Shown here: one piece after another, positions 1,136 through 63,996 of the stretch
Layout: every line of letters starts with the position of its first letter
How positions within the stretch are numbered: position 1 is the stretch's first letter
Assembly (NCBI GenBank): GCA_016787525.1
Contig: JAEUUP010000092.1
Location: 62,001 to 126,000, forward strand
Source of the DNA: Saprospiraceae bacterium
Lineage (GTDB): Bacteria; Bacteroidota; Bacteroidia; Chitinophagales; Saprospiraceae
DNA length: 64,000 nt
Direction: 5' to 3'
Position numbers and translations under genes: made by a program
Notes under the pieces: generated by a model
Told to the model about the DNA's origin: nothing
Seen by the model: the letters and a program-made list of their open reading frames with translations, nothing else
The model's database searches: none

Positions 1136-1750
1136 ATGGATGTATTAAACGAAATCAAACGCTTAAAAAACATTGCAGACATAGGTTTGCTTTATGCCAA
1201 AGACCCCTACGATAGGGAAAGATACTCAGAGTTATTCGACATCAGCCTCAATCTTTTAGCAACAGTTACAGATACCCCCCTCAGTAAATTGTCTGATTTT
1301 TATCTGCCACCGACCGACTATCCAACACCCAAAGTGGATGTCCGCGCACTTGTGTTGGACGAACAGAAACACATTCTGATGGCTCGTGAACGCTCGGATG
1401 GGCGTTGGTCGCTCCCCGGTGGTTGGGCCGACGTTGGCCTGTCGCCAAGAGAAATAGCCGTGAAAGAGGTTTTTGAAGAAACGGGCTTAACCGTTGAGCC
1501 ACAACATCTTTTGGCGGTTTTTGACAAAAAATGCCACCCACATCCGCCTCAAGGATTCTATGTTTACAAGTTGGTGATACTGTGTTCTTACGTTTCGGGG
1601 CATTTGCAACCCGCGCACGATATTCTCGATGCACAATTTTTCTCTATTGCCTCACTGCCACCTTTGTCTGAAAACCGAATTTTGGAGTCACAAGTAAAAT
1701 TGGTTTTTGAAAAAGCTGTTTCAGGCGATTTAAGAACTTACTTTGATTGA
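1136..1750 (+). CDS. NUDIX hydrolase with N-terminal helical domain
   Basis: 204 residues. An N-terminal helical segment (about 1-60) precedes the Nudix fold, as in the YjhB-like subfamily acting on ADP-ribose or similar nucleoside diphosphate derivatives. The Nudix helix reads VGLSPREIAVKEVFEETGL. The catalytic EExG part is intact, but the usual first Glu is Leu and the Arg of REUxEE is Lys, so metal binding may be altered. Substrate cannot be told from sequence. Residues 46-48 (PLS) are encoded by a copy of the dispersed ACTGAGGGG motif. Confidence 0.85.
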   Translation: MDVLNEIKRLKNIADIGLLYAKDPYDRERYSELFDISLNLLATVTDTPLSKLSDFYLPPTDYPTPKVDVRALVLDEQKHILMARERSDGRWSLPGGWADVGLSPREIAVKEVFEETGLTVEPQHLLAVFDKKCHPHPPQGFYVYKLVILCSYVSGHLQPAHDILDAQFFSIASLPPLSENRILESQVKLVFEKAVSGDLRTYFD

Positions 1751-1769
1751 AATTTATAAAACAATCAAA

Positions 1770-3131
1770 TTACCCATATTTTTTCAAGTCTATCAAATGA
1801 GTCGGCACATCTTTTTCATTCCAATGCGGATGAATGGCTAAAGCTGCACCCATAGCCGAAGCTTGCGCCACAGAAGCAGCATAGACTTGAATGTGGGGAA
1901 AAGCTTGTGCTAAAAGAGTCATATAAATCGGGTTCTTTGAAAAACCACCATCCACAAACAACCGTTCAATCGGCTCTGACCCCCTTAGTACCAACTCTGT
2001 CGAAGCAACTTGTTGCGCCATCAAATCCAAGATAAGTTGATGATAAGTATATTCGACCGTTTCTAAATCTGCCAAATCTCGTTGCCCAAAGACGGAAGCC
2101 GTGCGCACCGTAGCAGCCGTGAAACCGCGCAAAATACGGCGGTTGCGCTCCCTCAATATCGCGATGATTTCAGCATCGTAAGCGATGTTTTTATAAAAAT
2201 CTTGACTTAAATTGAAATACTCAGCGATGCGTTTGGTTTGTTCTTCATGTTCAAATCCTGCAAAAAGGCGGGCAGATTTTACAGGTTTGCCCTGAAAAGT
2301 CATGTAACAGAGGCAATCATTTTCCAACTCAAAATCCGTCAGAGGACTGTCGTTGAATGGATTCATCGAAATGCACCAAGTCCCTGTCGAAATCAATAAA
2401 AAAGGCTCATCGAAACTGCGCAAGTAAGGTATCAACGCCGAAGAACTATCGTGCAGCCCAACGCCTACTTTTAAATTTTCGTCTGTCTCGACAACAGAAT
2501 CCGAAGGGAAAAGGGGCGGCAATTTTTCCAAAATACCTTCTTTCGCCACCCAATCGGCATAACGATTTTCATCAAAATTCCACAAATTGGTGTGGCAACC
2601 GATGCTGGTGATGTCAGAATAGGTTTGCTTTGAAAACAAATAGCTCAAATATTGAGGCAAATGCAGTGAAAAAGCTATTTTTTTGAAGACTTCTGGTTTT
2701 TCATATTTCAAACGATAAATCTGCATACCCGAATTGAGGTTGCCCAAAACAGGTGAAGCCGATACACGTGAAAACGCGGCTTCGCTGCCATTGTCTTCGT
2801 AAAACTGACGTTTTAAAACCTCCGATAAGGGTTTCAAATAGTTGTAAAGTGGTGCAACAGCCACCCCCTCAGTATCGAGATGCACAAACGACGCACCATA
2901 AGCCGAAAAATTAACAGCCTTAATCTCAAACCTTTGGTCCTCGGACACTTCTCTAAAACTCGACACAACCCAATCCGTCAGTTTGCCCAAATCCTCACAG
3001 GCATCGCCGTCTTCGTCAGTGGTTTCTGCAAAATTTTCTGATTTTTCTAAAACGATACGGTACTGTTCGTCAATTAAAAACAGTTTTTTATTGGTCTTGC
3101 CTATATCAAAAATGGCAATTGCTGTTGTCAT
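1770..3131 (-). CDS. FGGY-family carbohydrate kinase, probably L-rhamnulose kinase
   Basis: 453 residues from the ATG at 3131, chosen because the conserved phosphate-binding start (AIAIFDIGKTNKKLFL) follows directly; an upstream start would add 14 unconserved residues. FGGY kinases phosphorylate sugars in the cytoplasm. The second ATP-binding segment is seen in ISTGTWCIS and LFVDGGFSKN. Kinases with this N-terminus accompany RhaI and the aldolase/dehydrogenase in Bacteroidota rhamnose loci, so it likely supplies the kinase step missing from the rhamnose genes at 34.8-48 kb. Fuculokinase or another ketose kinase is possible. It is divergent from the DUF1080 gene. Confidence 0.8.
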   Translation of the reverse strand: MTTAIAIFDIGKTNKKLFLIDEQYRIVLEKSENFAETTDEDGDACEDLGKLTDWVVSSFREVSEDQRFEIKAVNFSAYGASFVHLDTEGVAVAPLYNYLKPLSEVLKRQFYEDNGSEAAFSRVSASPVLGNLNSGMQIYRLKYEKPEVFKKIAFSLHLPQYLSYLFSKQTYSDITSIGCHTNLWNFDENRYADWVAKEGILEKLPPLFPSDSVVETDENLKVGVGLHDSSSALIPYLRSFDEPFLLISTGTWCISMNPFNDSPLTDFELENDCLCYMTFQGKPVKSARLFAGFEHEEQTKRIAEYFNLSQDFYKNIAYDAEIIAILRERNRRILRGFTAATVRTASVFGQRDLADLETVEYTYHQLILDLMAQQVASTELVLRGSEPIERLFVDGGFSKNPIYMTLLAQAFPHIQVYAASVAQASAMGAALAIHPHWNEKDVPTHLIDLKKYG

Positions 3132-3305
3132 ATTCCCTATTTTAAACTTTTCAGCTACAAACATAGCAAACAAAAGCAGATAATTCTTTGTCTTTTTTGC
3201 CCAACTTTATGCACTTATTGACTCGAAAAAAGGTGAAATAGCGTAAAGTTTGTACTTTTAGGCAATCTAAAAAAACTATTTTTTGACAATTCATCAAACG
3301 GTACA

Positions 3306-4508
3306 ATGAAAAACCTACTTCTCTTGGTTGCATTTTTAGCAATTGGCCTCAGCGGACAGGCTCAAAAATTTCAAAAAATATTCAATGGTAAAGACCTGAC
3401 AGGTTGGACCATCAACGGCACAGAAAAATGGTATGTCGAAAAGGGCGAACTCGTCTGTGAAAGCGGTCCAGAAAAAAAGTACGGTTATCTTTCGAGCAAT
3501 AGATCGTACAAAAACTTCATTTTGGAATTAAATTTCAAGTTGGAAGCCAATGGCAATAGTGGTGTATTCTTCCGTTCGAGCATCGAAGGCGTGAAAATCA
3601 GCGGTTGGCAAGTCGAGGTGGCTCCTCCTGACCACCACACAGGTGGCATTTATGAATCGTATGGCAGAGGTTGGCTCATCAAACCCAATCCTGCGCATGA
3701 AAAATATCTGAAAGCCACCGATTGGAACAAAATGAAAATCCATGTCAACGGTAATCACGTCACGACTTGGCTCAACGGTCACATGATGGTGGATATTGAC
3801 GATGAGAAAATTGGTCGTGGCAAGGGTTTTATTGCTTTGCAAATCCACGATGGCGGTGGCATCAAAGTGCGGTGGAAAAATATCAAGATAAAAGAATTGC
3901 CTTATACCCCCTCAGTAAGGACGCTTTTTGACGGTAAAACATTCAATGGCTGGCATATTTACAATAAAAAAGGCGAAGTGAAAGGTTGGACAATTGAAGA
4001 GGGCGCACTCGTTTGTCATGGCACAGGTGGTGATTTGGTGACAGATGCAGAATATGATAATTTTGAATTGTCGTGGGATTGGAAAATTACTGAGGGGGGC
4101 AATAGTGGTGTGATGTATCATGTGATCGAGAATGAAAAATACAAAGCACCGTACCACACAGCCCCTGAATATCAATTGATTGACGATATTGGTTTCCCTG
4201 GAAAATTGGAAGAATGGCAAAAGGCAGGTGCAGATTATGCCATGAATCTGCCGAACGATAAGAAAAAGCTCAAACCTGTTGGCGAATGGAACACAAGTAA
4301 AATCGTGTTCAACAATGGGGTGGTCGAACATTGGCTTAATGGTGAAAAAATCATCGCTTTCACACGAGATGCCAATTGGGAAAAAGCCAAACGGACAGGC
4401 AAGTGGAAAGATTTTCCTGACTACGGCTCGGCTAAAAAAGGTAAAATTGCATTACAAGAGCATGGCAATAAAGTGTATTTTCGGAATATTACTTTGAAGG
4501 AGTTATAA
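3306..4508 (+). CDS. Secreted protein with two DUF1080 (3-keto-disaccharide hydrolase) domains
   Basis: 400 residues with a signal peptide (MKNLLLLVAFLAIGLSGQAQ). Two homologous DUF1080 lectin-like beta-sandwich domains follow, about 25-200 (FNGKDLTGWTINGTEKW, NSGVFFRSS) and 205-400 (FDGKTFNGWHIYNKKG, NSGVMYHV). Family members hydrolyse 3-keto-glycosides or bind glycans in the periplasm, which fits the Gfo/Idh/MocA oxidoreductase elsewhere in the window that could make 3-keto sugars. It has two copies of the dispersed motif (encoding PSV and TEGG), one in each orientation. A terminator follows. Confidence 0.88.
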   Translation: MKNLLLLVAFLAIGLSGQAQKFQKIFNGKDLTGWTINGTEKWYVEKGELVCESGPEKKYGYLSSNRSYKNFILELNFKLEANGNSGVFFRSSIEGVKISGWQVEVAPPDHHTGGIYESYGRGWLIKPNPAHEKYLKATDWNKMKIHVNGNHVTTWLNGHMMVDIDDEKIGRGKGFIALQIHDGGGIKVRWKNIKIKELPYTPSVRTLFDGKTFNGWHIYNKKGEVKGWTIEEGALVCHGTGGDLVTDAEYDNFELSWDWKITEGGNSGVMYHVIENEKYKAPYHTAPEYQLIDDIGFPGKLEEWQKAGADYAMNLPNDKKKLKPVGEWNTSKIVFNNGVVEHWLNGEKIIAFTRDANWEKAKRTGKWKDFPDYGSAKKGKIALQEHGNKVYFRNITLKEL

Positions 4509-4557: not shown

Positions 4558-4606
4558 CACTGATATGCCTCAATATAATCTGCAAATAAACCCCTCAGTA
4601 TCTGGC

Positions 4607-7276
4607 TTATCTACCTGATAATTTCACCATTTTTTCTATTTTTCCATTCAATTCAGTCTCTAAAAGCAGTTTTTCCATAGGTAAATGGAAACGGAAACGC
4701 CAATAGTGTTGTGGATTGGCAGGTTCGTTGATTTGCTCGGCGGTGGCATTGGTGCGACGTAGGGATTCGTTCATGCCCACGAGGTCTTGAATAGGGAAAA
4801 TCGCCCACATACTCGGTGCATCCAAATGTTGCTTGTTGATGGCTTCCACAATTTCGGGCGTGCAATCGTGCGGCGCAGTGCCGTAGCGTTTCAGACTGGC
4901 GTTGTAAAAACGTTGTGCCATAGCATAGTCGCTCTCCCACCAACCGCGAACGGTGGACATATCGTGACAAGACGGGCTGCATACTGAGGGGTATGGATAT
5001 TTATGCGTCTCGCCAAAATCCGTTGCCCCCTTTGGCATCCTTTGAATTTCTAAAGCAATGATATTCAAGGCTTGCATCACACTTGGGACTGAATTTGGAA
5101 TCATACCCAAATCTTCGCCACAGATAAACATGCGTGTTGCATGAATCAAAGCTGGCAGTTTCCACAAGGCTTGTTGTTTCCAAAACTCGTCGTGGCGATG
5201 GAAGAAATAGTCGTCGTACAATCGGTCAATGATGTATTTGCCAAAATCATCCAACTCTTTGTACGAACGCGTGGTGTGAACTGTGATTCGTGGGTTGAAA
5301 AACGCGCCATGACTGAGGGGTTCTTCAATCAATAACACTTCGCCTACGAGTTGCATCAAGCCTTTAGCTAAGTGTTTTTTATCTGAAAAATCTTTGTTTT
5401 CTGCAAAAAACTCTTTGATTTGGGCTTGCGTACGCACAAAAGATTTGAGTGAAAAATGTGAAAATGATGTTTCATCCAAAAAAGTTTGACGTACAAAGTC
5501 AGCGTCCTCGCCAAATATTTCATTCAAAAAATGTCCTCTGATATAGGGTTGAGTGTAGCGATCGAGATTGCCCCGCAGGCCCATCACATCCAATTCTTGC
5601 CGAGAATAAGGCAAACGAGGATTGAACAGCCCTAAAGTGCCTTCCACTTGGTCAATCGGAATCTGCCAAATGCGGAAAAAGCCCAAAATATGGTCAATAC
5701 GCAATGCGTCGAAATATTCACTCAGCTTGGTCATACGTTTGCGCCACCAAGCGAAATTGTCTTGCGCCATCACATCCCAATTGTAGGTCGGGAAGCCCCA
5801 ATTTTGCCCTGCGACAGCGTAGGCATCTGGTGGTGCGCCTGCCTGACCATCCATATTGTAGAGATGAGGGGCCACCCACGCATCGCAACTGTACCGATAA
5901 ATGCCAATGGGTAAGTCACCTTTTAGCACCACACCTTTTGAACGAGCGTAGTTTGTGGCTTCAAAAAGCTGTTTGTGCGCATGATACTGGATAAAATAGT
6001 ACACTGCGATTTCATCGAACTGCGGATACTGAGGGGTGCATAAGTCTGCTACAACCTGTGGCGAAAAGGTGCTGTATTGCGCCCATTTATGAAATTGTGT
6101 CGTACCATTTACATCTCTCAAATGACAGAACGCGGCATACGGTTTGAGCCAATCCGCATTGTCCGCTATGAAAGTTTGAACGTCTTTATTTTTGAAAAAC
6201 GCTTTTTTCTCTTGTTCAAAAAGCAGTTTGAAATAATAAAATTTATTGACACTAACTTGCTCATAATCAACTGTTTCCAATTGATTCAATACGTGTGTGG
6301 TCGCTTCTAATTGGGCGGCAGCAGCTTTGTCTTTTAGTTTGGCAATGGCTTGTAGATTGACGTAATAAGGGTGCAAAGCATAGACCGAAATAGCAGCATA
6401 AGGATAAGAATCCACCCATGTTTTGGTCGCAACGGTGTCATTGACAGGCAAAATTTGGACGAGTTTCATACCTGTTTGGGTCGCCCAATCTACAAGCATA
6501 GGAATGTCCGTAAATTCACCTATACCCAATCCTTTTTCGCTTCGCAACGAAAAAACGGGGATAGCAACACCTGCACCACGCCACAAAGCCGATGCATAGC
6601 GGAAACTTTCGTCGGTGCGCACCAAGGCATTGTTTTTTACTGAGGGGAAGGTGAAAGAGCAAGAACGATTTTCGCCTCTTTCCCACTCTATTATTTTATT
6701 CGTTTTAGGGTCGAAAATGACGAATTTGTACTCAAAATCTACTTGATTGCTCTCAATTTCGATGTCAGCTTGCCACAAAGGGAAGTTTTTGTCAGACATA
6801 CTGAGGGGGTGCTTCCACTCGCCCAACGCCTTTGAACTGCCCACAATACCGAATGACAAGTGCTGTGGAATAGCTGAGGCAAAAAGCTGTAAAACAAGAC
6901 GATTGGCAGAGGAGGTTTTAGAAATTGACTCACTCGCATGATTTCTTTTGAAAATAACATCTTGAAAAGCGGCTGAAAAAAAGGCACGCTCCAATTCGTA
7001 TTCAGCTCGCCAAGCGTCCTGATAGAATGCTTGTGTAAGCCCTTTCGGAATGGTCAATGGGCGCATAGCCCCATGTTCTGCTAATAAACCTTTGAACGAT
7101 TGAACGAAATATTTGTATGTAATCGTCTCATTGTCATCTACTTGTACGGCTGCGTGCCAATTGGTCGCGTCGTAACTTTGACAAATGATAATTTCTTCTA
7201 CGCCGTTTCGGTTGAATTGTATGGCTATTTGTTCTCCCTTCTTTGTGCCATAATTGATGTGGAAGTTGGCTATCAT
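4607..7276 (-). CDS. malQ: 4-alpha-glucanotransferase (amylomaltase, GH77) with N-terminal starch-binding domains
   Basis: 889 residues from ATG 7276; a longer frame adds 21 residues that look like leader sequence. It transfers maltodextrin segments between glucans in the cytoplasm. Two carbohydrate-binding modules of the CBM20/48 sort lie at about 1-105 and 120-235 (FGIVGSSKALGEWKHPLSM). The GH77 barrel follows, with nucleophile region ALRIDHILGFFR, acid/base region FICGEDLGMIP and the SCHDMSTVRGWWE motif. The two-CBM plant DPE2-like form is common in Bacteroidota. Six copies of the dispersed motif lie within the gene, the densest coding cluster in the window. Confidence 0.95.
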   Translation of the reverse strand: MIANFHINYGTKKGEQIAIQFNRNGVEEIIICQSYDATNWHAAVQVDDNETITYKYFVQSFKGLLAEHGAMRPLTIPKGLTQAFYQDAWRAEYELERAFFSAAFQDVIFKRNHASESISKTSSANRLVLQLFASAIPQHLSFGIVGSSKALGEWKHPLSMSDKNFPLWQADIEIESNQVDFEYKFVIFDPKTNKIIEWERGENRSCSFTFPSVKNNALVRTDESFRYASALWRGAGVAIPVFSLRSEKGLGIGEFTDIPMLVDWATQTGMKLVQILPVNDTVATKTWVDSYPYAAISVYALHPYYVNLQAIAKLKDKAAAAQLEATTHVLNQLETVDYEQVSVNKFYYFKLLFEQEKKAFFKNKDVQTFIADNADWLKPYAAFCHLRDVNGTTQFHKWAQYSTFSPQVVADLCTPQYPQFDEIAVYYFIQYHAHKQLFEATNYARSKGVVLKGDLPIGIYRYSCDAWVAPHLYNMDGQAGAPPDAYAVAGQNWGFPTYNWDVMAQDNFAWWRKRMTKLSEYFDALRIDHILGFFRIWQIPIDQVEGTLGLFNPRLPYSRQELDVMGLRGNLDRYTQPYIRGHFLNEIFGEDADFVRQTFLDETSFSHFSLKSFVRTQAQIKEFFAENKDFSDKKHLAKGLMQLVGEVLLIEEPLSHGAFFNPRITVHTTRSYKELDDFGKYIIDRLYDDYFFHRHDEFWKQQALWKLPALIHATRMFICGEDLGMIPNSVPSVMQALNIIALEIQRMPKGATDFGETHKYPYPSVCSPSCHDMSTVRGWWESDYAMAQRFYNASLKRYGTAPHDCTPEIVEAINKQHLDAPSMWAIFPIQDLVGMNESLRRTNATAEQINEPANPQHYWRFRFHLPMEKLLLETELNGKIEKMVKLSGR

Positions 7277-7325: not shown

Positions 7326-8057
7326 CTATAAACGAACATTTAGCCCAAAAGTCAAAGTATTTTCTTCGTCAAACTCTATGCCGTTGGGTCGCTCTCGGTG
7401 ATTGCGCATATAGCCTAAATCTAAAGTATATTTAGGATTAAGTTGGAAAGCTGTTGAAAAAGAAGCCCAATTTTGGTCAAAAATATGAACTGGCTTGTTG
7501 GGTGGCATTGAAAAAAACACTTCATCGGAAGCCGTTAAACGCCATTTTGGGGTAACTTGATACTGGGTCATCGCTCGGAAACGCGAACGACCTGCTGGTT
7601 TGAAATTTTGTAATTTTGAAATTCGACATTCATACATAGCTCGCTCGCGAAAGGTCCATTTTTTCACTTTTTGTTGACCTTCTATACCTGCGGCACTGCT
7701 GAATGTGTGATTAGGCAAGAGGTTGTAGTCTGTCATTTTACCAATAAAAGGTGTCGAATAAACATAGCTAAAAGGATAAGAAATGATTGAATAGTTTTTT
7801 TGCCTGTAATTCAACCAAATACGCGGTTGCTGACTCCATTGTCTGGAGAATAGATTCCATCGTGAATGTTCCAAATCACTTTGAGTGCGATACCAATACT
7901 CGGCTTGCATTTCCCATTTTTTACTGAGGGGTACTGTCACTGACAATCTACCCCAAAAAGTGGCGTGCGTATAGTGTTGTGCTTGCGCGGTTTTACTGAT
8001 AAAAAACAAGGCACAAAGCACCAAAAGATGGCGAACGGGTGTTGAACGAGCATACAT
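7326..8057 (-). CDS. DUF2490 family outer-membrane beta-barrel protein
   Basis: 243 residues from the ATG at 8057, which gives a clean signal peptide (LLVLCALFFISKTAQAQ). The rest alternates aromatic and polar residues (WEMQAEYWYRTQSD, RIWLNYRQKN, LTFGLNVRL) and ends in a hydrophobic C-terminal strand typical of an outer-membrane barrel. DUF2490 proteins are uncharacterised. It lies 49 bp upstream of malQ on the same strand and could be cotranscribed. Confidence 0.75.
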   Translation of the reverse strand: MYARSTPVRHLLVLCALFFISKTAQAQHYTHATFWGRLSVTVPLSKKWEMQAEYWYRTQSDLEHSRWNLFSRQWSQQPRIWLNYRQKNYSIISYPFSYVYSTPFIGKMTDYNLLPNHTFSSAAGIEGQQKVKKWTFRERAMYECRISKLQNFKPAGRSRFRAMTQYQVTPKWRLTASDEVFFSMPPNKPVHIFDQNWASFSTAFQLNPKYTLDLGYMRNHRERPNGIEFDEENTLTFGLNVRL

Positions 8058-8194: not shown

Positions 8195-9691
8195 TCATTG
8201 AAACACCCGCACATAATCCACTTCTAAAGTTGCGGGAAAAATACTCTCATCTATGCCTTTCTCGCCACCCCAATTGCCACCAATCGCTAAGTTGAGCAAT
8301 AGATATTGCGGTTTGTCAAAAGGCCACTCCTTATCCGTTTTATGGTCATTTTGAACGGTCAAATACACCTGATTGTCAAAAAGAAAGTCCATTTTATCCT
8401 TAGTCCACTCAATAGCATAGACATGAAATTCGGTATTAACATTTCTGGCAAACAGCCGTTTGGTCTTTTGCGTGCCTTTGATATGGTTATACGAGGTGGT
8501 GTGGGTGCTGCCCACAATCGTGTCGGGGTCATAGCCGACGTGCTCCATAATGTCAATTTCGCCACATTGAGGCCAGCCAACTTCTTTGATATTTGCGCCT
8601 AACATCCAGCCTGCGGGCCAAGTACCTCGCCCTTTGGGTAGTTTTGCTCTGATTTCGATGCGACCGTATGTCCACGAGTCCTTGCCGCGTGTCACCAAAC
8701 GAGCCGAGGTATAGTCTTTACCTTCCTTTTTCTCCTTTCGTGCAACAATTGACAGCAGACCATCCTTCACAAAAGCATTCAATGTATCCCCCTCAGTATA
8801 ATACTGTGCTTCGTTGTTGCCCCAACCGTGACCACCGACATCGTAAGCCCATTTTCTGTCGTTAGGTAAACCTGAATAGTTGAATTCATCGCTCCAAATC
8901 AGTTTTCGCGTATTTTTTTTCAAATTCTCGACCTTCCTTAAAGCCAATTCAGGTTCGTCAGTTGTTAAAAAATCAATATGTCGAATGAGTAAAAAATCCA
9001 TAACGAGCGAATCGTTCACTGTCCAAGCATTCGTGACAATACCTATTTTTTGAGCATCCACCAACCACTCTTCGTCTTTTTGAAACAAACTAAAATGGTA
9101 ATCTGCGCCCGACAAACCATCTTTTTTCAACTGAGCAGCCGATACGCCACCATTGAGGTATTGTGTTGAGGCGTTTTTGTCCAATTCATGCACTTTTTTC
9201 AAAATATCGTAATCAAAACTGATATAAACAACCCAATCTTGCGCTTTTAGAGCTTTCACCATGTTCACAACTTTCTGCGCCAACAACAAGGAACGCTCTT
9301 TACCCGTAGGCGAAGGCTTGATTTCAGTTATCAATTTAGTCGTCTTTTGCTTTTTGCCTGCTTCCAAATATTGCTTCAACGTAGGTATTGGTTCACCATT
9401 TTTCAAAGGTTTTTTCAAAAGGTCGGCATAACGAGTCTTTTCGATATCTAAACCTTCGTGATGTGGGTCGTGGCAAATAACCAAAACTTCATCTAAAGTC
9501 ATACGTACATCAAATTCAGAACCAGAACAACCCAATTTCACAGCATTTTGTAGGGCAGCAATCGAGTTTTGCGGTGCGCCTGTGTGTTTCCAAGCACCAC
9601 GATGGGCAATGACTTTATTTTGATGAAAATGTTGAGCATTCAGATGTAGAACGCAAAAGAAAGCGAAAAATGCAGCGACTAATTTAGGCAT
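8195..9691 (-). CDS. Secreted fusion of a glycerophosphodiester phosphodiesterase domain and a GH16 glucanase
   Basis: 498 residues with a signal peptide (about 1-19). Residues 25-235 are a GDPD domain: the first motif VIAHRGAW, the metal site EFDVRM, the catalytic HDPHHEG and TEIKPS. Residues 245-498 are GH16: WSDEFNYSG, then the catalytic ExDxxE in GEIDIMEHVG, and a C-terminal strand. GH16 enzymes cut beta-1,3/1,4 glucans such as laminarin. The fusion suggests one secreted protein removing both a phosphodiester-linked glycerol and a glucan backbone, or debranching glycerophosphorylated glucan. Both active sites look intact. Confidence 0.9.
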   Translation of the reverse strand: MPKLVAAFFAFFCVLHLNAQHFHQNKVIAHRGAWKHTGAPQNSIAALQNAVKLGCSGSEFDVRMTLDEVLVICHDPHHEGLDIEKTRYADLLKKPLKNGEPIPTLKQYLEAGKKQKTTKLITEIKPSPTGKERSLLLAQKVVNMVKALKAQDWVVYISFDYDILKKVHELDKNASTQYLNGGVSAAQLKKDGLSGADYHFSLFQKDEEWLVDAQKIGIVTNAWTVNDSLVMDFLLIRHIDFLTTDEPELALRKVENLKKNTRKLIWSDEFNYSGLPNDRKWAYDVGGHGWGNNEAQYYTEGDTLNAFVKDGLLSIVARKEKKEGKDYTSARLVTRGKDSWTYGRIEIRAKLPKGRGTWPAGWMLGANIKEVGWPQCGEIDIMEHVGYDPDTIVGSTHTTSYNHIKGTQKTKRLFARNVNTEFHVYAIEWTKDKMDFLFDNQVYLTVQNDHKTDKEWPFDKPQYLLLNLAIGGNWGGEKGIDESIFPATLEVDYVRVFQ

Positions 9692-14428: not shown

Positions 14429-14494
14429 CAAATATACGCACATACTGAGGGGGTATCTGATGATAAATATCAACTTATGAGGTGATTTAAGTCA
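14429..14494 (-). promoter_or_regulatory. Tandem FNR-type box promoter of the HMA gene
   Basis: On the minus strand a perfect TAnnTTTG element (TATATTTG) lies at 14436-14429. A proximal palindrome TGATAAATATCA is at 14461-14472 and a distal TGATTTAAGTCA at 14483-14494. Box centres are 22 bp apart; the proximal centre is 36 bp from the centre of TTTG. The region 14461-14498 resembles 34770-34806 in front of the sensor kinase. Confidence 0.75.
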
Positions 14495-16549: not shown

Positions 16550-16666
16550 AATTCAACGCATAGATGGTATGGTGAATTATGGCTCAGATACTGAGGGGTC
16601 AAATTTAAACAATCTTTGCTTTAGATTTAGCTTAGTAACGCAACATAAATAAACGACACTATTATA

Positions 16667-19530: not shown

Positions 19531-19599
19531 TATTTAACAATATTTAGTTATGCCCACCCCTCAGTTAGTAGTTGACTGGTTATTGGTCATTATGAGATT

Positions 19600-55154: not shown

Positions 55155-56592
55155 ATCTCAAAATAGATACATCCCCTGATAGTTCGCGTACCTGCCATTT
55201 GCCATTGAGTAATAATTTGACGCGAATCGTCCAAATATAGACACCAGACTCTACTTGTTGACCTTTGAAACGCCCGTCCCACGATTCATTAAGGTCTTTT
55301 GTTGTGAAAACAAGGCTGCCCCAACGATTGAAAATACGCATGTCGTAAGATTCAATCTTGATAAAATCGGTTTTGAAGAAAGGTTTGAAGTCATCATTCG
55401 CCCCGTCGTTATTGGGCGAGAAAGTGTTTGGCACAAATACTTCTAAGCCACAACTTTGTAAACGCAAGCGAAAAGTATCTGTCCACGAGGCACAATTGTT
55501 TTTTATTTTAGCAAAATAGACCCCCTCAGTACGAGACTCAAATTGGCGGCTTTTTGAGCCATTTTGCCATTCAATTGTCTCATTTTCAAGATTTGTTCCT
55601 GCGGTGAAGATGACTTTTTCACCTTGGCAGGCGACCGTATCGAAGGCGATTGGTTTGTAGTTGTCACCTAAAACTTTAAAGTTCATATCACCATAAGCCA
55701 CACAATTTTCAGTGGGATAAATGACTTTGGCTGAAATTCGTTCAGTTTTTGAAGCCTTATACTGAGGGGTCGTCGAATTGTCGTGCCATTGATAACGCAA
55801 GGAGTCAATCAGCGTATTGCCGACATCGAACGATACCGTTTGCCCTTGACAAACGACCGTATCTTTTAGATTGACCGTCACGGGTACAAGAACGATATTG
55901 TCCACAACATGTGTACTGCTGGTGTACTGAGTGGGGCTTGTCTTGCCTGTTGGGACGCGGGTTGTTTCTGCATTAGACCTAAAATTGCCTATAATGAGGT
56001 ATTTTTCGCCACCTCTTGCCGTGAAACATCCTTTGAGTTTGTGCCAATTATAGTCTTTTACGAGAGGGTGACTGAGTATGGGTTTTAGTGAAATATAATT
56101 GTTAGGAATACTCCAATCATAAAGAGGGAAATCGTTTGTGAAAGCAATGGCGTGCGAATCTGTGAAGTCAGTTGTCACCCGAACCAAGTTTGGCACTGTA
56201 TCGAGCGTCCGAAACGACATCTCGAAGTAGTAGTTTTGATTGGCAACGAGTGGCTCTTTGAGGACATGCGCCAAATAAGCCCGATGATGCGACACATTCT
56301 GAATGATGATGAAAAAACCATAGGTCTCAAATGAACAACTTTTAGACTTGTTGATACCAAAAGTGTCCACATTGCCAGCCCAATAGATGCCGTATTGGCA
56401 AGGGTCGGAGAGGTTAATGGGCGTATTTTGAGGCGTAAACCAACCCGTAGGTACATGAAAAGTCGTCAAACCAGAAATACAATCCTTCGTTTCTTCAAAA
56501 TCGCCGTTGGGGACGAGATTGGTTTGTGCTGTATTTTTTAAGTAAAAAAACAGCAATATAAGAACGAATAAGCCGTGTTTGTTCCATTTCAT
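55153..56592 (-). CDS. Secreted protein with T9SS type B (gliding motility-associated) C-terminal domain
   Basis: 479 residues from ATG 56592. Signal peptide (LFVLILLFFYLKNTAQT), a mid region with NLVPNGDFEET near the start, Ig/PKD-like beta repeats (around 255-390), and the CHU_C sorting domain (VPNTFSPNNDGANDDFKPF, YDMRIFNRWGSLVF, WDGRFKGQQVESGVYIW) at about 390-479. It is exported by the type IX system and likely attached to the surface. Its start overlaps the stop of the upstream membrane protein (ATGA), so they are translated together. Confidence 0.88.
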   Translation of the reverse strand: MKWNKHGLFVLILLFFYLKNTAQTNLVPNGDFEETKDCISGLTTFHVPTGWFTPQNTPINLSDPCQYGIYWAGNVDTFGINKSKSCSFETYGFFIIIQNVSHHRAYLAHVLKEPLVANQNYYFEMSFRTLDTVPNLVRVTTDFTDSHAIAFTNDFPLYDWSIPNNYISLKPILSHPLVKDYNWHKLKGCFTARGGEKYLIIGNFRSNAETTRVPTGKTSPTQYTSSTHVVDNIVLVPVTVNLKDTVVCQGQTVSFDVGNTLIDSLRYQWHDNSTTPQYKASKTERISAKVIYPTENCVAYGDMNFKVLGDNYKPIAFDTVACQGEKVIFTAGTNLENETIEWQNGSKSRQFESRTEGVYFAKIKNNCASWTDTFRLRLQSCGLEVFVPNTFSPNNDGANDDFKPFFKTDFIKIESYDMRIFNRWGSLVFTTKDLNESWDGRFKGQQVESGVYIWTIRVKLLLNGKWQVRELSGDVSILR

Positions 56593-57224: not shown

Positions 57225-58706
57225 TTATGAATAACTATCCAATGCCAAATAGACACCGTTTGTCCAACCAAAACCATCTTGAAGTGGGTATTCGCCGCCA
57301 CCTGCTTCGAGATCTTGTTCATAGACATTGTATTTTTCTGTCATTTTGCCTGTTTTTTCATAGATGACTTTATTGGCTCTTAACCAATGTGCTTTGATTC
57401 GATTAGCCAAGTTTGAAAAACCATAATTGTGTAAGCCTTTGAAAACAATCCATTGCAAAGGTGCCCAACCATTGGGGGCATCCCATTGCTGACCTGTGAC
57501 GTTGAGCGTTGTCGTTACGCCGCCTATCTGTAGGAATTGGTTTTCAATGATTTGTGCAACCTTTTGCGCTTGCTCCTGATTGGCTAAATTAAAAAACAAA
57601 GGAAAGACCGCCGCCAATGTAAAATGAGGTGTTTGACTATTGGTCACAAAATCATAATCGAAATAGAAACCTTTTTCAGCGTTCCAACAATAATCATTGA
57701 TAGCTTTTTTTCTGACAAGAGCCTTGTCTATATAATCTTGTGCTTTATCGGCATTGTCAGCCAGTTGATGTGCTTCTGCCAAAGTCATTTCTAAATGCCA
57801 CATCAAACAGTTCAAATCCACGGGAATGATGTCCGTTGTGTGAATGGTTGCCAAAGACTGACCATCTTTGAACCAACGACTACTAAAATCCCAACCCGAC
57901 TCTGCCGCCGCCCGAAGATGACGATAAATTACTGAGGGGTCTTGCGAAGACTCGTGAGCTGTTTCGACATCTTCTTTATATGATTCTGGACGAGGTGTAT
58001 TGTTTTCATCCCAATAGCGGTTCATAACTGTCTCATTAGGCATCAAGACAGAATGATTTTCAGACCTATGTCCCCCCCTCAGTATATCACTGCCTTTCAT
58101 CCAAAATGAATACTCTTTTTCCAATCCAGGCAGATACTCAACAAGCGTACTTTGTCCTTTCTCTTCGCTCAATAGTCGAATCATAAGCGCATAGAAGGGT
58201 GGTTGCGAACGTCCGATATAATAAGTTCGATTGCCATTGGGAATATGACCAACCGTATTGAGCAAATGAGAGAAGTTTTTGACCATGTTTTCAATCATAT
58301 CCACCCGACCAGAGACTTGAAGTCCAAGCATAGTGAAATAACTGTCCCAATAGTAAATCTCTCGAAACCGTCCGCCTGGCACAATAAAAGAGTAGGGGAG
58401 AGGAATCAAACTACTTTGCGTCTTATCGGGCTGACGTGTCAACACGTGCCATAGTGAAGTGATGTGTGCCGTAATACTTTTCGTTGTATCACTCGTAAAA
58501 TCATCCCCATTATTGGTTGGCAACTCGAAATGTGCTTCTATAAATGCACCTAAATCGAACCCCTCAGTATTTCGTTCCTGTTCATAGCTCGCTTTGATGG
58601 TTTCAAGAGGGTATTTTGGCAAACAATCAGGAAAAGTTTTGCCATCAGATAGAATATTATTCATTTGGACAGCTTCGAAAAGGTGTCCGAGTTCAAAAAT
58701 TTGCAT
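57225..58706 (-). CDS. Alpha,alpha-trehalase (GH37), cytoplasmic
   Basis: 493 residues without a signal peptide. GH37 signatures are PGGRFREIYYWDSYF and QWDAPNGWAPLQW. It hydrolyses trehalose to two glucose in the cytoplasm, like TreF. The gene lies just downstream of an MFS transporter on the same strand (31 bp gap), suggesting uptake and hydrolysis in one unit. Three dispersed-motif copies lie within (NTEG, ILRGG with a seven-C run, DPSV). Confidence 0.95.
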   Translation of the reverse strand: MQIFELGHLFEAVQMNNILSDGKTFPDCLPKYPLETIKASYEQERNTEGFDLGAFIEAHFELPTNNGDDFTSDTTKSITAHITSLWHVLTRQPDKTQSSLIPLPYSFIVPGGRFREIYYWDSYFTMLGLQVSGRVDMIENMVKNFSHLLNTVGHIPNGNRTYYIGRSQPPFYALMIRLLSEEKGQSTLVEYLPGLEKEYSFWMKGSDILRGGHRSENHSVLMPNETVMNRYWDENNTPRPESYKEDVETAHESSQDPSVIYRHLRAAAESGWDFSSRWFKDGQSLATIHTTDIIPVDLNCLMWHLEMTLAEAHQLADNADKAQDYIDKALVRKKAINDYCWNAEKGFYFDYDFVTNSQTPHFTLAAVFPLFFNLANQEQAQKVAQIIENQFLQIGGVTTTLNVTGQQWDAPNGWAPLQWIVFKGLHNYGFSNLANRIKAHWLRANKVIYEKTGKMTEKYNVYEQDLEAGGGEYPLQDGFGWTNGVYLALDSYS

Positions 58707-60003: not shown

Positions 60004-60283
60004 AGTTTGGTTGTTGTTAAGTTTATACATTCTTGTTATAATCGCTCAAAACTATCTTTTTTTGATTAAAAACGTATGGTTGTTTAGGTATAAATTTGGC
60101 GAAGCTTGTTAAAGGTTAGTATGAATCAATGGATTCAAGATTTCAAACAGTTCCATACTTTGAAAACTGTTTTTTCTTAGTCTTGGACACAGATAGATAG
60201 TAGTCAAGTTCCCAATTTACTGAGGGGGACTCGACACGTTCTTAAACGCCCCCAAATCATGAAGACTTTTTGTTCCCTATCTT

Positions 60284-61690
60284 TTACCAAACATAAGTTG
60301 CTACGCTGCCACTTGGCAAAGTTACAAGAGCTGATTTTCCATTGTATCGAATATTGAAAGTTTCATCTTTGGCACTGTTGTTTTCGGCTATTAAAACAAT
60401 CTTGCCCGCAGGCGTTTTAAACGCGACATTCTGCACTTGACCTACAAAGTTGCTGCTGATACGCACCGAATTAGGCGGTACAAATCGAGACGCATGACCG
60501 ATGATGTAGTAAGCAACGTTGCGCTCTACTTTCTCACCGATTGTCAAAGCTCCTTTGCAAGTTGTACACCCCCCCTCAGTATGCGGCTCGAATTTTGGGT
60601 CATTTGCCAAATTCCATTCAAAAGCGGTGCGACTCCAGTTGCGTATTGTGCCAATGACCACATTTTGAATGTGCCAATGCAAATCACCACCAAATTGCCC
60701 ATCAATGCCTGTGTATTGTTCCGTAAAATAAAGATGTTTGTCGGGATGCGCTTCATGCACCTTCGACAAGGCACTGGCATCGCCTGCATAAAGATGAAAA
60801 GCGGAACCCCAAACATAAGGTTTTACTGAGGGGTCGTTCAAAATCGCCAATGGATAGTCGGGACGGTCGCAATTGTGGTCGTAAACGATGATTTTGGTTT
60901 TGATATTCGCTTTCTGAAACGCTGGAGCTAAGTGGTTTTTAATAAAATCCGCCTGTTGCGTTGCCAACATCAAAAGACTTGGGTTATTCCCTGGGTGCAA
61001 AGGCTCGTTTTGAGGTGTAATGGCTTCAATGTCAATACCTTCTGTCCGCATTTGTTGAATGTATTTGACAAAATATTGGGCATAAACACCATAATATTGA
61101 GGTTGCAAACTGCCACCTATAAAGCTAAACGTGTCTTTCATCCACAAAGGCGGCGACCATGGTGTCGCTAAAATTTTAATTTTAGGATTGATTGTCAAGA
61201 TCTCTTTCAATAGTGCAATCACTCCTTTTCTGTCTTTATCCAAACTAAAATACTTTAATGCTGTATCCGTCTCGCCTTTTGGTACATCGTCATAAGTGAA
61301 AGACGTGGCGTGCAAATCCGATGCGCCAATACTGATACGTAAATAGCTGATAGCCATTTGATTTGGCGAAAACAATTCTTGTAACAAAGCGGCTTTATCT
61401 GCCGATTTCATGCGATTGATAACATCCGCACTGCCACCTGTCAAAGTATAGCCAAAGCCATCCATGGTTTGGAAACGTGTCGTTTCGTCAACCTTAATAG
61501 TTGGAAAGCTATTTGTTTCTGGTCCAAAAACAAGGGGTGTATTTTGCTTTTGCAATAAAGCCGTTTGGTCGCTTTTGGTGAGCCAAACGGTTATTTGGGA
61601 CGCTGTTTGCCTATTTTTATTAACTTTTTTAGAACAATTGAGTGTCAAAAAACAAAGAGCTGCCAATAAAGAATACTTGAATAGAGACAT
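60284..61690 (-). CDS. GH30 family glycoside hydrolase lipoprotein
   Basis: 468 residues. Lipobox LTLNC (Cys19) anchors it to a membrane. GH30 barrel: FQTMDGFGYTLTGGSADVIN, LATPWSPPLWMKDT, acid/base Glu in AITPQNEPLHPGN and nucleophile Glu in LYFTEQYTG, with a C-terminal beta domain. GH30 includes beta-1,6-glucanases and glucosylceramidases; an endo-beta-1,6-glucanase role is most plausible. It is last in an operon with a SnoaL-like protein and an EEP phosphatase. Confidence 0.9.
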   Translation of the reverse strand: MSLFKYSLLAALCFLTLNCSKKVNKNRQTASQITVWLTKSDQTALLQKQNTPLVFGPETNSFPTIKVDETTRFQTMDGFGYTLTGGSADVINRMKSADKAALLQELFSPNQMAISYLRISIGASDLHATSFTYDDVPKGETDTALKYFSLDKDRKGVIALLKEILTINPKIKILATPWSPPLWMKDTFSFIGGSLQPQYYGVYAQYFVKYIQQMRTEGIDIEAITPQNEPLHPGNNPSLLMLATQQADFIKNHLAPAFQKANIKTKIIVYDHNCDRPDYPLAILNDPSVKPYVWGSAFHLYAGDASALSKVHEAHPDKHLYFTEQYTGIDGQFGGDLHWHIQNVVIGTIRNWSRTAFEWNLANDPKFEPHTEGGCTTCKGALTIGEKVERNVAYYIIGHASRFVPPNSVRISSNFVGQVQNVAFKTPAGKIVLIAENNSAKDETFNIRYNGKSALVTLPSGSVATYVW

Positions 61691-63015: not shown

Positions 63016-63102
63016 ATTATACGCGAATTAAGAGTTAAAAAAGCCCTATCGGGTTCAAGGCGAAATATTGGTAGCCCTTTTGAATAGTATTTTCACCAAA
63101 GA

Positions 63103-63133
63103 TAGAAAAGGCGCGCCTTATTTATGCACGCCT
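63103..63133 (-). terminator. Possible terminator after the MOSC gene
   Basis: On the minus strand AGGCGTGC and GCGCGCCT can pair with one G-T and are followed by TTTTC. The stem is short, so this is a weak call. Confidence 0.4.
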
Positions 63134-63156
63134 CTTGCGTTTTATATCGAAACATC

Positions 63157-63996
63157 TCAAAATACGGTGATTGGGTCGCCCACTTTCACTTCAGGTTGCC
63201 AAGCCCATTGCCATTTTTGATTATTCCAAATCACATTTTGACCAAAGAGAATCTTTTTCCCACGTTCACGGAAGGTCATTAAAGTGTCCAAAGGTTCTTT
63301 GCCTTTTTCGCCTGTATCGGGGTCTTGTGTCGTCATAACACACCGTCCGCAAGGTTTAACGCCTTTGAAATCCACTTCGCCAATCCGAAAATCCCCAAAA
63401 TAATCCTCCGCAAAAGGAGTACCGCCTGAGAAAACAAAATTGGTACGGAAGCGGCGCATACTGAGGGGGGCATTCGACGGTTTTCTTTCGGCTATTTTTT
63501 CGTTCAATTGCACCATCGAGGCTTCGCCAATGATTAAAAACGGAAAACCATCGGCATAGCTCACAATATCGTCGCCCGTGTTGAAATCTTCATCCACCCG
63601 CCTTTGGCTGTGCGGTGGCATCGTGACGAGTTGGCACTTTTTACCTAAGAAATCGCTCAAAAACGCATTGGCTTCTGGACTTACCAGTACCGAAACCACG
63701 CGGTCGTCCCAGATTTCCGTATCCATCACCCCCTCAGTAATTTGGTCGAAAATGCTTAGTTTTACGCCATTTTGAGGGTTTTCTTTTTCAAAAATCAACA
63801 ACTGATTGTCTTCGACGACGGCTTTGAGCAAAGCCATGCGTTTATTATTTCGCAGGGTCATAAACAGACCTTTTTCGTCAGTTATCATCCAACGGCGATC
63901 GTATTGCAAGCCTTGTTTTTCGACCACAGCCGATTGCGGCGAGTACCCATCGAGCGATTTGACGGGAAAAACATTGATTTGAGTGAGTGTCAGCAT
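63157..63996 (-). CDS. MOSC-domain protein with N-terminal beta barrel
   Basis: 279 residues, complete within the window. N-terminal MOSC_N barrel (TQINVFPVKSLDGYSPQSAVVEKQGLQYDRRWMITDEKG) and C-terminal MOSC domain with conserved Cys in GVKPCGRCVMTTQDPDTGE. It is a molybdenum-cofactor sulfurtransferase-like or mARC-type protein that reduces N-hydroxylated compounds. It is the only other molybdenum-linked gene besides moaC. Confidence 0.9.
   Translation of the reverse strand: MLTLTQINVFPVKSLDGYSPQSAVVEKQGLQYDRRWMITDEKGLFMTLRNNKRMALLKAVVEDNQLLIFEKENPQNGVKLSIFDQITEGVMDTEIWDDRVVSVLVSPEANAFLSDFLGKKCQLVTMPPHSQRRVDEDFNTGDDIVSYADGFPFLIIGEASMVQLNEKIAERKPSNAPLSMRRFRTNFVFSGGTPFAEDYFGDFRIGEVDFKGVKPCGRCVMTTQDPDTGEKGKEPLDTLMTFRERGKKILFGQNVIWNNQKWQWAWQPEVKVGDPITVF

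What the first reader, a model, noticed from the sequence alone, without database searches (positions are those of the whole stretch)
1275..63739. A 10-bp motif, TACTGAGGGG, is repeated 79 times: a candidate uptake or recombination signal in Bacteroidota
Seen in sequence: 43 plus-strand and 36 minus-strand copies in 64 kb, about one per 810 bp. At roughly 41-42% GC, the 9-mer ACTGAGGGG is expected about 0.25 times on both strands, so it is enriched some 300-fold (hand estimate). The core is fixed; the G run is 4 (31 copies), 5 (33), 6 (11) or 7 (4), and T usually follows. Copies occur evenly across genes of different function, including the plasmid-type module, and strand use is near balanced. 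Established knowledge: such density, mixed strands and coding location are the hallmarks of DNA-uptake sequences in Neisseria and Pasteurellaceae; chi sites are dense but oriented. Inference: an uptake sequence, or else a chi-like, nucleoid or methylation signal. I know of no such motif described for Bacteroidota.
Basis: partly seen in the sequence, partly recalled or inferred. Interest (0 to 1): 0.95.

Follow-up and report, generated by a model that had tools for sequence, protein, structure and literature searches.

The report
Genome-wide self-DNA tag in Bacteroidota
One bacterium, likely of the phylum Bacteroidota, carries the same 10-letter DNA word 6,920 times, on both strands and throughout its genome, while 444 related genomes carry it 0 to 14 times each; the word likely works as a self-recognition tag for taking up the species' own DNA, as known tags do in Neisseria and Haemophilus, but here in a cell that seems to lack the pili those tags rely on.

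Summary
Confirmed, and genome-wide. The window has 80 ACTGAGGGG (74 TACTGAGGGG; chance 0.03). The whole draft genome (7.27 Mb) has 6,920 (3,457/3,463) against 3 for the reversed word; 444 relatives have 0-14, and 386 further genomes of the phylum 0-4 of an 11-letter form. Copies use every codon frame without a stop, are spaced more evenly than chance, and show no orientation with GC skew. They mostly evolved in place: 141 of 160 alignable sites have no gap against homologues. Flanks carry a 10.5-bp AT/GC rhythm locked to the motif, equal in genes and between genes, so it is a DNA-level signal. Three more unrelated dispersed words turned up: TGGGGGGCWWWW (1,955 and 2,721 copies) in two of twelve Hymenobacter, GGCTTTCGCC (455) in another Saprospiraceae, TGGCCTA(G) in H. 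wooponensis (two regions only). This matches DNA uptake sequences. ComEC, DprA, ComF-like and HhH proteins are present, but no type IV pilus/Tad ATPase passes cut-off in the five motif-rich genomes tested, so the pilin receptor of known systems is unlikely. Best reading: a pilus-independent uptake signal (0.6). Main rival: a wrapped nucleoid or topoisomerase site. Uptake itself is untested.

The parts
486..495 (+). motif copy, G4
1275..1286 (-). motif copy, G6
2864..2874 (-). motif copy, G5
3907..3917 (-). motif copy, G5
4088..4099 (+). motif copy, G6
4591..4600 (-). motif copy, G4, between ORFs
4982..4991 (+). motif copy, G4
5312..5320 (+). motif copy without leading T, G4
6027..6036 (+). motif copy, G4
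6638..6647 (+). motif copy, G4
6799..6809 (+). motif copy, G5
7922..7931 (+). motif copy, G4
8788..8798 (-). motif copy, G5
11578..11589 (+). motif copy, G6
11830..11839 (+). motif copy, G4
13108..13118 (+). motif copy, G5
13497..13508 (-). motif copy, G6
14208..14218 (-). motif copy, G5, between ORFs
14443..14453 (+). motif copy, G5, between ORFs
14649..14658 (+). motif copy, G4
15951..15960 (-). motif copy, G4
16589..16598 (+). motif copy, G4, between ORFs
17951..17960 (-). motif copy, G4
18409..18421 (+). motif copy, G7, between ORFs
18981..18990 (+). motif copy, G4
19557..19565 (-). motif copy without leading T, G4, between ORFs
20521..20532 (+). motif copy, G6, between ORFs
21124..21133 (-). 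motif copy without leading T, G5
21873..21882 (+). motif copy, G4
22440..22452 (-). motif copy, G7
22695..22705 (-). motif copy, G5, between ORFs
23439..23449 (+). motif copy, G5, in FixG-like ORF
25347..25357 (-). motif copy, G5
26700..26710 (+). motif copy, G5, between ORFs
26906..26916 (+). motif copy, G5, between ORFs
28204..28214 (-). motif copy without leading T, G6, in COX1/FixO fusion ORF
29127..29137 (+). motif copy, G5, near start of the COX1/FixO fusion ORF
29433..29443 (+). motif copy, G5, between ORFs
30047..30056 (+). motif copy, G4, in E1-E2 ATPase ORF
30205..30215 (+). motif copy, G5, in E1-E2 ATPase ORF, encoding part of NHPLS
30801..30810 (-). motif copy, G4, in E1-E2 ATPase ORF
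31644..31653 (+). motif copy, G4, in E1-E2 ATPase ORF
32713..32723 (-). motif copy, G5
32848..32857 (-). motif copy, G4
34047..34058 (+). motif copy, G6, written into conserved SHEFRTPLST residues
35165..35176 (+). motif copy, G6, between ORFs
36864..36874 (-). motif copy, G5, plasmid-type module (Toprim/DnaG-like ORF)
37497..37507 (+). motif copy, G5, plasmid-type module
39284..39294 (+). motif copy, G5, between RepA- and ParA-like ORFs
39674..39683 (+). motif copy without leading T, G5, between ORFs
40640..40649 (-). motif copy, G4, between ORFs
41959..41968 (-). motif copy, G4
42308..42317 (+). motif copy, G4, left arm of hairpin 42308-42337
42328..42337 (-). motif copy, G4, right arm of the hairpin, between convergent ORFs
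   Evidence: -21.4 kcal/mol, z -3.3
43436..43446 (+). motif copy, G5, between ORFs
44408..44418 (+). motif copy, G5
44911..44919 (-). motif copy without leading T, G4
45726..45736 (+). motif copy, G5
46312..46322 (-). motif copy, G5
47100..47109 (-). motif copy, G4
47859..47869 (-). motif copy, G5
48518..48529 (+). motif copy, G6, left arm of hairpin 48518-48556
48546..48556 (-). motif copy, G5, right arm of the hairpin
   Evidence: -29.5 kcal/mol, z -5.3
49352..49362 (-). motif copy, G5
49656..49665 (+). motif copy, G4
50401..50410 (-). motif copy, G4
52164..52174 (-). motif copy, G5
53028..53039 (+). motif copy, G6
53443..53453 (+). motif copy, G5
54215..54224 (-). motif copy, G4
55521..55531 (-). 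motif copy, G5
55760..55769 (+). motif copy, G4
57930..57939 (+). motif copy, G4
58072..58084 (-). motif copy, G7
58560..58569 (-). motif copy, G4
60218..60228 (+). motif copy, G5, between ORFs
60569..60581 (-). motif copy, G7
60824..60833 (+). motif copy, G4
63459..63470 (+). motif copy, G6
63729..63739 (-). motif copy, G5

Best explanation
The motif, present 6,920 times in the genome, is likely a DNA uptake sequence: a tag that a competence machine is predicted to recognise, so that the cell would prefer its own species' DNA. Steps. (1) Shown: a strict core (A/T)TACTGAGGGG(G/T), on both strands, evenly spaced, inside and between genes, with a 10.5-bp AT/GC rhythm in the flanks. (2) Shown for most sites that could be aligned: they arose by base changes in existing sequence, not by insertion. 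(3) Shown: genes for ComEC, DprA, a ComF-like phosphoribosyltransferase, a four-HhH (ComEA-like) protein and an outer-membrane beta-barrel are present, four of these five in one 8-kb cluster; no type IV pilus or Tad ATPase passes the cut-off. (4) Inferred: an unidentified outer-membrane or surface receptor reads the core and bends the phased flank while DNA enters; ComEC carries one strand inwards; DprA and RecA recombine it. (5) Inferred: because fragments with the tag enter more often, alleles that gain or regain a tag spread without any benefit of the single site (molecular drive), which would account for thousands of near-perfect, evenly spaced copies.
For: 6,920 copies against 3 for the reversed control; 0-14 in each of 444 relatives and 0-4 of the 11-letter form in 394 genomes over the phylum, 386 of them new. 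1,152 exact against 165 one-mismatch copies in 1.163 Mb, that is 14% (21% for kingDUS, PMC3630211 passages). All stop-free frames used, sense 448 and antisense 506. Spacing CV 0.735 against 0.993 for random placement, lowest of 1,000 0.905; 10-kb variance/mean 0.52. No orientation with GC skew, 585 of 1,128. 141 of 160 alignable sites without gaps, and residues under the motif less conserved than flanks, 0.349 against 0.452, p 1e-6. Flank rhythm equal in intergenic, sense and antisense sites. Other words in other lineages; in two Hymenobacter 8 of 14 sites shared at orthologous places. Competence genes. Own-DNA preference shown in Riemerella columbina, a Flavobacteriaceae member of the phylum (PMC7965970, section 16).
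Against: No uptake or transformation experiment is known to me for this organism. ComEC is also in 22 of 24 relatives without the motif, and DprA matched in 11 of 14 control genomes, so these genes are not specific. No pilus ATPase over cut-off, only four weak hits, so the receptor type of the proven systems is missing. The strong DUF5689 protein seen in many relatives (same domain as the Riemerella competence protein RS04920) is not in this genome, which has only two weak partial hits in other kinds of protein. Hairpin pairs are few: 8 inverted among 10 pairs closer than 60 bp, of 1,152 copies. Gaps, though rare, are three times as frequent at the motif as in flanks (0.063 against 0.021), so a minority of copies may lie in inserted loops. 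The long helical phasing has no counterpart in the known uptake sequences that I know of, and recalls wrapped topoisomerase sites. The one same-genus genome held has only 3 copies, so site history in this lineage could not be followed.
Confidence: 0.6

Rival explanations
1. The motif is a binding site for a chromosome protein that wraps DNA (an HU-like nucleoid protein, gyrase or topoisomerase IV), placed about once per kilobase to organise or relax the chromosome; selection keeps the sites.
For: 10.5-bp AT/GC rhythm locked to the motif, strongest within about 55 bp upstream (amplitude 0.075) and to about +110 downstream (0.041, 0.025), weaker to about -160 and +230; at DNA level, not protein level. 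E. coli gyrase sites have a 130-bp pattern with 10.75-bp GC periodicity (PMC6379681 passages). Even spacing.
Against: The gyrase pattern is described as symmetrical and degenerate; here the core is a strict asymmetric 10-mer and the upstream rhythm is about twice the downstream one. The word is confined to one species among those searched while such proteins are general (recalled). Selecting thousands of near-perfect sites one by one is hard without drive (inference). Part of the far rhythm may be the genome's own 10-11 bp periodicity.
Confidence: 0.16
2. The motif is a recombination or repair signal acting inside the cell (chi-like for AddAB/RecBCD, or a KOPS-like guide).
For: High density and short G-rich core; G-rich chi sites are known (recalled).
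Against: No strand bias with local GC skew, 585 of 1,128, and 146 of 279 where skew exceeds 0.04; contigs are drafts, so ori and ter were not mapped. Over-even spacing is not expected of chi (inference).
Confidence: 0.08
3. A repeat of the HIP1 type, enriched by an unknown modification, repair or conversion process unrelated to DNA uptake.
For: HIP1 is also highly repeated and unexplained; a link to orphan methyltransferases is proposed (PMC4390886, start of abstract in the listing).
Against: HIP1 is palindromic, this word is not. No methylation data or methyltransferase analysis was made here.
Confidence: 0.12
4. A very small mobile element inserted thousands of times.
For: High copy number, near-perfect copies, expansion in one species among those searched. 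Gap fraction at motif residues 0.063 against 0.021 in flanks; 3 of 160 sites wholly gapped.
Against: 141 of 160 alignable coding copies have no gap against homologues; copies use residues conserved in homologues, such as SHEFRTPLST.
Confidence: 0.02

Closest known systems
DNA uptake sequence (DUS) of Neisseriaceae, read by the minor pilin ComP
   Same: 10-12 nt, non-palindromic, thousands of copies, lineage dialects, few one-mismatch copies (14% here; 21% for kingDUS, PMC3630211 passages).
   Different: No pilus ATPase over cut-off; the words of the lineages found here are unrelated, whereas the Neisseriaceae dialects share CTG (PMC3630211 passages). The CTGA inside TACTGAGGGG echoes that core, probably by chance. 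Long helical phasing in the flanks.
Uptake signal sequence (USS) of Pasteurellaceae
   Same: Short core plus AT-rich tracts that aid uptake (PMC7811141 passages); the Hymenobacter word TGGGGGGCWWWW has an AT tail.
   Different: In the window's species the AT/GC rhythm lies on both sides, is stronger upstream and runs over many helical turns; no type IV pilus ATPase over cut-off.
HIP1 (GCGATCGC) of cyanobacteria
   Same: Very frequent, function unsettled (PMC4390886, start of abstract in listing).
   Different: HIP1 is palindromic and linked to methyltransferases; this word is not a palindrome.
DNA gyrase cleavage pattern of E. coli
   Same: AT/GC rhythm of about one helical turn around a centre (PMC6379681 passages).
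   Different: Gyrase pattern symmetrical and degenerate; here a strict asymmetric 10-mer.
Riemerella natural transformation system (Bacteroidota)
   Same: ComEC, DprA, ComF, RecA, an HhH protein and a CarboxypepD_reg outer-membrane protein are required there (PMC8459023, abstract, section 19 and passages); genes with the ComEC, DprA, ComF-like, HhH and CarboxypepD_reg domains are present here. R. columbina prefers own DNA (PMC7965970, section 16).
   Different: No dispersed word was reported there: the k-mer table lists only A/T-rich words. Orthology of the beta-barrel was not tested; a strong DUF5689 partner is not found here.

Membership tests
DUS/USS-type uptake sequence (general) | Short non-palindromic word, hundreds to thousands of copies on both strands genome-wide | tested here: met
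   3,457/3,463 against control 1/2
DUS/USS-type uptake sequence (general) | Copies inside genes in all permitted frames, evolved by substitution | tested here: met
   (141 of 160 ungapped; gap fraction 0.063 at motif, 0.021 in flanks)
DUS/USS-type uptake sequence (general) | More even spacing than chance | tested here: met
   CV 0.735 against 0.993 random
DUS/USS-type uptake sequence (general) | Lineage-specific dialects, sites kept at orthologous places | tested here: inconclusive
   Unrelated words in other lineages; 8 of 14 sites shared in two Hymenobacter. Not testable in the window's own lineage: no close relative with the word was found, and the words of the lineages are not variants of one another
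DUS/USS-type uptake sequence (general) | Frequent inverted pairs forming terminators (recalled for DUS) | tested here: inconclusive
   Two in the window fold well, but only 8 inverted pairs under 60 bp among 1,152 copies
DUS/USS-type uptake sequence (general) | Competence genes present | tested here: met
   ComEC, DprA, ComF-like, HhH; ComEC also in 22 of 24 relatives without the word
DUS/USS-type uptake sequence (general) | DNA with the word is taken up or transforms better | not testable with these tools
   needs bench work
Neisseria/Pasteurellaceae pilus-dependent uptake system | Type IV pilus with pilin receptor (ComP; ComN predicted, PMC12616744 in listing) | tested here: not met
   No T2SSE (PilB/PilT/Tad) hit over cut-off in G000, G445, G446, G447 or G843; four weak hits in G000, one in G843; pilins were not searched
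Chi / KOPS | Orientation biased with replication | tested here: not met
   585 of 1,128 with local G-rich strand, p 0.22; local skew used as proxy
HIP1-like highly iterated palindrome | Palindromic | tested here: not met
   TACTGAGGGG read directly
Gyrase-type wrapped site | Symmetrical periodic flanks, degenerate core | tested here: not met
   asymmetric amplitudes 0.087 and 0.039 and strict core
Mobile element | Copies are insertions | tested here: not met
   141 of 160 ungapped, 3 wholly gapped

The most novel reading that the evidence does not exclude
Several Bacteroidota lineages have, independently, evolved self-DNA tags for a pilus-free uptake machine, with words unrelated to each other; in this species the receptor reads a strict 10-mer together with many turns of helically phased, wrapped DNA, a recognition mode not described for any uptake sequence.
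Probability: 0.42. Interest if true: 0.93.

Novelty: new variant of a known kind. Interest (0 to 1): 0.82.

Why it matters
Uptake sequences are described for Pasteurellaceae and Neisseriaceae (PMC7811141, start of abstract and passages), both using type IV pili (recalled). An uptake-type tag in Bacteroidota without detectable pilus ATPase would mean the trait arose again with different machinery, give a handle on the unknown DNA receptor of Bacteroidota competence, and offer a sequence tag to make environmental Bacteroidota transformable. It would also turn 'which Bacteroidota are naturally competent, and with whom do they exchange DNA' into a genome-reading question. If instead the sites are wrapped nucleoid or topoisomerase sites, a strict 10-mer at one per kilobase would be as surprising.

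Tried and rejected
Slippage of the G run: rejected, since the downstream rhythm keeps its place relative to the A for G4 to G7. Protein-level origin of the rhythm (alpha-helix periodicity): rejected, same phase in intergenic, sense and antisense sites and in every frame. Composition as the cause of the rhythm: nine other words give amplitudes 0.005-0.026 upstream and downstream against 0.087 and 0.039; some of these are small but above noise (GGGG 6.4 and 7.6 sd, ACTGAG 4.3 sd upstream, GATGGC 4.2 and 5.1 sd); a tenth row, the reversed core, had one site and is left out. 300 draws of random positions reach at most 0.0125 upstream and 0.0093 downstream. The genome has a weak periodicity of its own. 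Rhythm in Hymenobacter: n = 120, 3.8 and 3.1 sd, while other GGGG sites give 3.1 and 3.9 sd, so I do not claim it. Insertion origin: rejected for most copies, although gaps are three times as frequent at the motif as in flanks. Chi/KOPS: not supported.

Other dispersed words in the survey (129 of 142 loci were long enough, 2 of them own): many weak hits look like codon or composition effects; GTGCGACGCAAG-type words (L229, L074, L086) are longer repeats, some as inverted pairs, set aside. L041, L047 and L062 are mainly tandem repeats, L099 and L103 longer inverted repeats. DUF5689 as receptor: only weak partial hits in a nuclease-like and a PLD-like protein with secretion tails, dropped. The beta-barrel of the cluster has homologues elsewhere in the genome and in relatives, so it is only a candidate. 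Rfam: no family over cut-off in the window. The printed listing shows only plus copies late in contig C6; this is a listing limit, as fetched C6 stretches have both strands. My note says 0-5 copies; the table gives 0-4. In one search, 786 of 946 in-ORF sites had no usable homologue, alignments under 35% identity were dropped, and at most three alignments per site were used. Structure prediction and protein homology searches were not used.

Full report
Observation. The word TACTGAGGGG occurs 74 times in the 64-kb window against 0.03 expected from shuffles, ACTGAGGGG 80 times (44 plus, 36 minus). In the whole draft genome (7,267,541 bases in 169 contigs, 98% complete; the window is contig C48, 62001-126000) there are 3,457 forward and 3,463 reverse copies, while the same word read backwards occurs 1 and 2 times: one copy per about 1,050 bp.

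Where else. In 118 relatives (one in the same genus) each genome has 0-14 copies; in 397 other genomes of the family 0-14. Without double counting these are 444 genomes. In 394 others drawn over the phylum, 386 of them new, the 11-letter form ending in K occurs 0-4 times (own genome 3,270 and 3,282). The massive presence is thus confined to this species among the genomes searched. The nearest named genomes by a cytochrome oxidase protein (COX1/FixO fusion) are Saprospiraceae, best Phaeodactylibacter sp. at 74% identity, so the organism is placed in Bacteroidota near there by inference; its own record seems to be left out of that search.

Anatomy of a copy. I took 1.163 Mb of the genome (and the window). 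Of the 10-letter word there are 1,152 exact copies against 0.5 expected and 165 one-mismatch copies: 67 at the first T, 82 at the four G positions, and 16 within ACTGA, where 10 are expected. The base before TACTGAGGGG is A in 57% and T in 27%. The apparent variable G run is a preference for G or T at the next positions: sequence beyond it keeps register with the core whatever the run length.

A helical rhythm. AT-rich and GC-rich positions alternate around the motif with a period of 10.5 bp: AT peaks near -13, -22, -34, -44, -55 and near +14, +25, +35, +47, +56 relative to the first A of ACTGAGGGG. Amplitude is 0.087 upstream and 0.039 downstream (27.7 and 15.5 sd), against 0.005-0.026 around nine other words, some of them above noise, and at most 0.0125 upstream and 0.0093 downstream in 300 draws of random positions. 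Phase and size are alike in 255 intergenic, 448 sense and 506 antisense sites and in each codon frame, so the rhythm belongs to DNA, not to protein. It is strong to about 55 bp upstream and fades slowly to about 200 bp downstream; the genome also has a weak 10-11 bp periodicity of its own, to which part of the far signal may be due.

Distribution. Of 1,214 sites, 954 lie in ORFs of at least 100 aa, which cover 86% of the sequence; 255 lie between and 5 at edges. All five frames without a stop are used. Spacing is more even than random: CV 0.735 against 0.993 (minimum of 1,000 simulations 0.905); variance/mean in 109 10-kb bins 0.52; 10 pairs closer than 60 bp against 65 expected; longest gap 5.9 kb, in and beside an ORF of 4,340 aa. 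Orientation follows the local G-rich strand in 585 of 1,128 sites (p 0.22). In the window, the stretch with Toprim-, RepA- and ParA-like ORFs (36.6-40.5 kb) carries four copies as well, so that module has probably been in the genome for long (inference).

How copies arise. Against homologues in relatives, 141 of 160 alignable coding copies show no gap at the motif residues and 3 are wholly gapped; identity at the motif residues is 0.349 against 0.452 in flanks (p 1e-6). Against this, the gap fraction at the motif, 0.063, is three times that of flanks, 0.021, so a minority of copies may sit in inserted loops (160 of 946 in-ORF sites had a usable homologue). Examples: the conserved SHEFRTPLST of a protein that looks like a histidine kinase by that box (recalled, no family search) and NHPLS of the E1-E2 ATPase. 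Most copies were therefore written by base changes into existing genes, at some cost to, or at weak points of, the proteins.

Other words. Among 129 loci of at least 12 kb (2 of them own) dispersed two-strand words appeared in a few others: TGGGGGGC followed by A/T in Hymenobacter qilianensis and Hymenobacter sp. BT188, genome-wide 1,955 (1,008/947) and 2,721 (1,393/1,328) for the form with four A/T, against 2-14 in ten other Hymenobacter; reversed control 1 in each of the two. GGCTTTCGCC in Saprospiraceae bacterium 354-166, 455 (221/234; control 18; in ten other genomes 6-120 with controls 4-76). TGGCCTA(G) in H. wooponensis, TGGCCTA 37 in 22 kb and 23 in another 20 kb, not counted genome-wide. 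In the two Hymenobacter, in 86-87% identical DNA, 8 of 14 sites (core only) are shared and five of six unshared differ by a single base or gap. Spacing in H. qilianensis has CV 0.83 in 222 kb, with no random control run. The rhythm could not be shown there.

Machinery. One contig carries, within 8 kb and on one strand, a ComF-like phosphoribosyltransferase with a weak zinc-ribbon match, ComEC, a protein with four HhH stretches, a 3D-domain protein and a TonB-type beta-barrel with CarboxypepD_reg (L163:6773-14789 = G000:C7:132773-140789); DprA lies on another contig. ComEC and an HhH protein are also neighbours in at least three of nine relatives, whose loci reach only about 1 kb beyond ComEC. 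In Riemerella anatipestifer, also Bacteroidota, ComEC, DprA, ComF, RecA, an HhH protein, an outer-membrane CarboxypepD_reg protein, a DUF5689 protein and a DUF1343 protein are required for transformation (PMC8459023: abstract, section 19 and passages). R. columbina prefers its own DNA, but its k-mer table shows only A/T-rich words (PMC7965970, section 16). No T2SSE ATPase of type IV or Tad pili passes the cut-off in this genome, in the three Hymenobacter with words or in Saprospiraceae 354-166; weak hits below it are four in this genome and one in 354-166.

Interpretation. Density, two-strand balance, frame use, in-place evolution, evenness, few degenerate copies and lineage-specific words are together the signature of DNA uptake sequences. 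PMC3630211 (passages) gives 5,918 copies in 2.4 Mb plus 21% one-mismatch for the densest case it found; PMC7811141 (passages) gives 1,465 and 1,892 for H. influenzae and N. meningitidis. I take the word to be an uptake tag of a machine without type IV pilus, spread by molecular drive. The receptor is unknown and uptake is untested. The long phased flank suggests that DNA is bent or wrapped when the word is read; that is where this differs most from known tags, and it is also the best argument for the rival, a wrapped chromosome-protein site (PMC6379681 passages).

Print search. Library searches for DNA uptake sequence with Bacteroidetes gave 5 papers, by title on other subjects, listing only; with Bacteroidota (uptake signal sequence and natural transformation), Hymenobacter or Saprospiraceae none. 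A wider search on uptake sequences and dialects listed 25 of 79 papers, the one on Bacteroidota by title being the R. columbina paper above. Searching for the letters themselves listed 20 of 81 papers, by title on unrelated, mostly medical subjects. Only open-licence PMC papers are held, so absence there is not absence in print.

Noticed in passing
L107, L102 and L265-L274 (Hymenobacter qilianensis and sp. BT188): Dispersed word TGGGGGGC plus A/T tail, about 2,000-2,700 per genome, in places as close inverted pairs ending in TTTT that would form terminators (listing); 2-14 copies in ten other Hymenobacter.
   Followed up: partly
L075, L264 (Hymenobacter wooponensis): Dispersed word TGGCCTAG/TGGCCTAC on both strands, 60 TGGCCTA in 42 kb; one-mismatch forms are frequent at several positions.
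   Followed up: partly
L044 (Saprospiraceae bacterium 354-166): Dispersed word GGCTTTCGCCAAA; the 10-mer GGCTTTCGCC occurs 455 times in the genome against 18 for the reversed control.
   Followed up: partly
L229, L074, L086: Repeats around TTGCGTCGCA, in L229 and L074 extended (CTTGCGTCGCACTCTTGTAC in L074) and partly in close inverted pairs; looks like a REP-type element.
   Followed up: no
L188:5718-18740: An ORF of 4,340 aa with very few motif copies, giving the two largest gaps found (5.9 and 5.2 kb); perhaps a young or repetitive gene.
   Followed up: no
window:36631-40470: Plasmid-type module (Toprim/DnaG-like, RepA, ParA-like) inside the contig, carrying motif copies; contig C48 (166 kb) may be or contain a second replicon.
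   Followed up: partly
own genome, 1.163 Mb sampled: Genome-wide AT autocorrelation with a 10-11 bp period reaching about 100 bp.
   Followed up: partly
G002, G003, G005, G008, G013, G014 and others: Strong DUF5689 matches, often two or three side by side in one ORF, in many relatives; only weak ones in the window's genome, its same-genus relative G001 and G004, none in G006 and G007.
   Followed up: no
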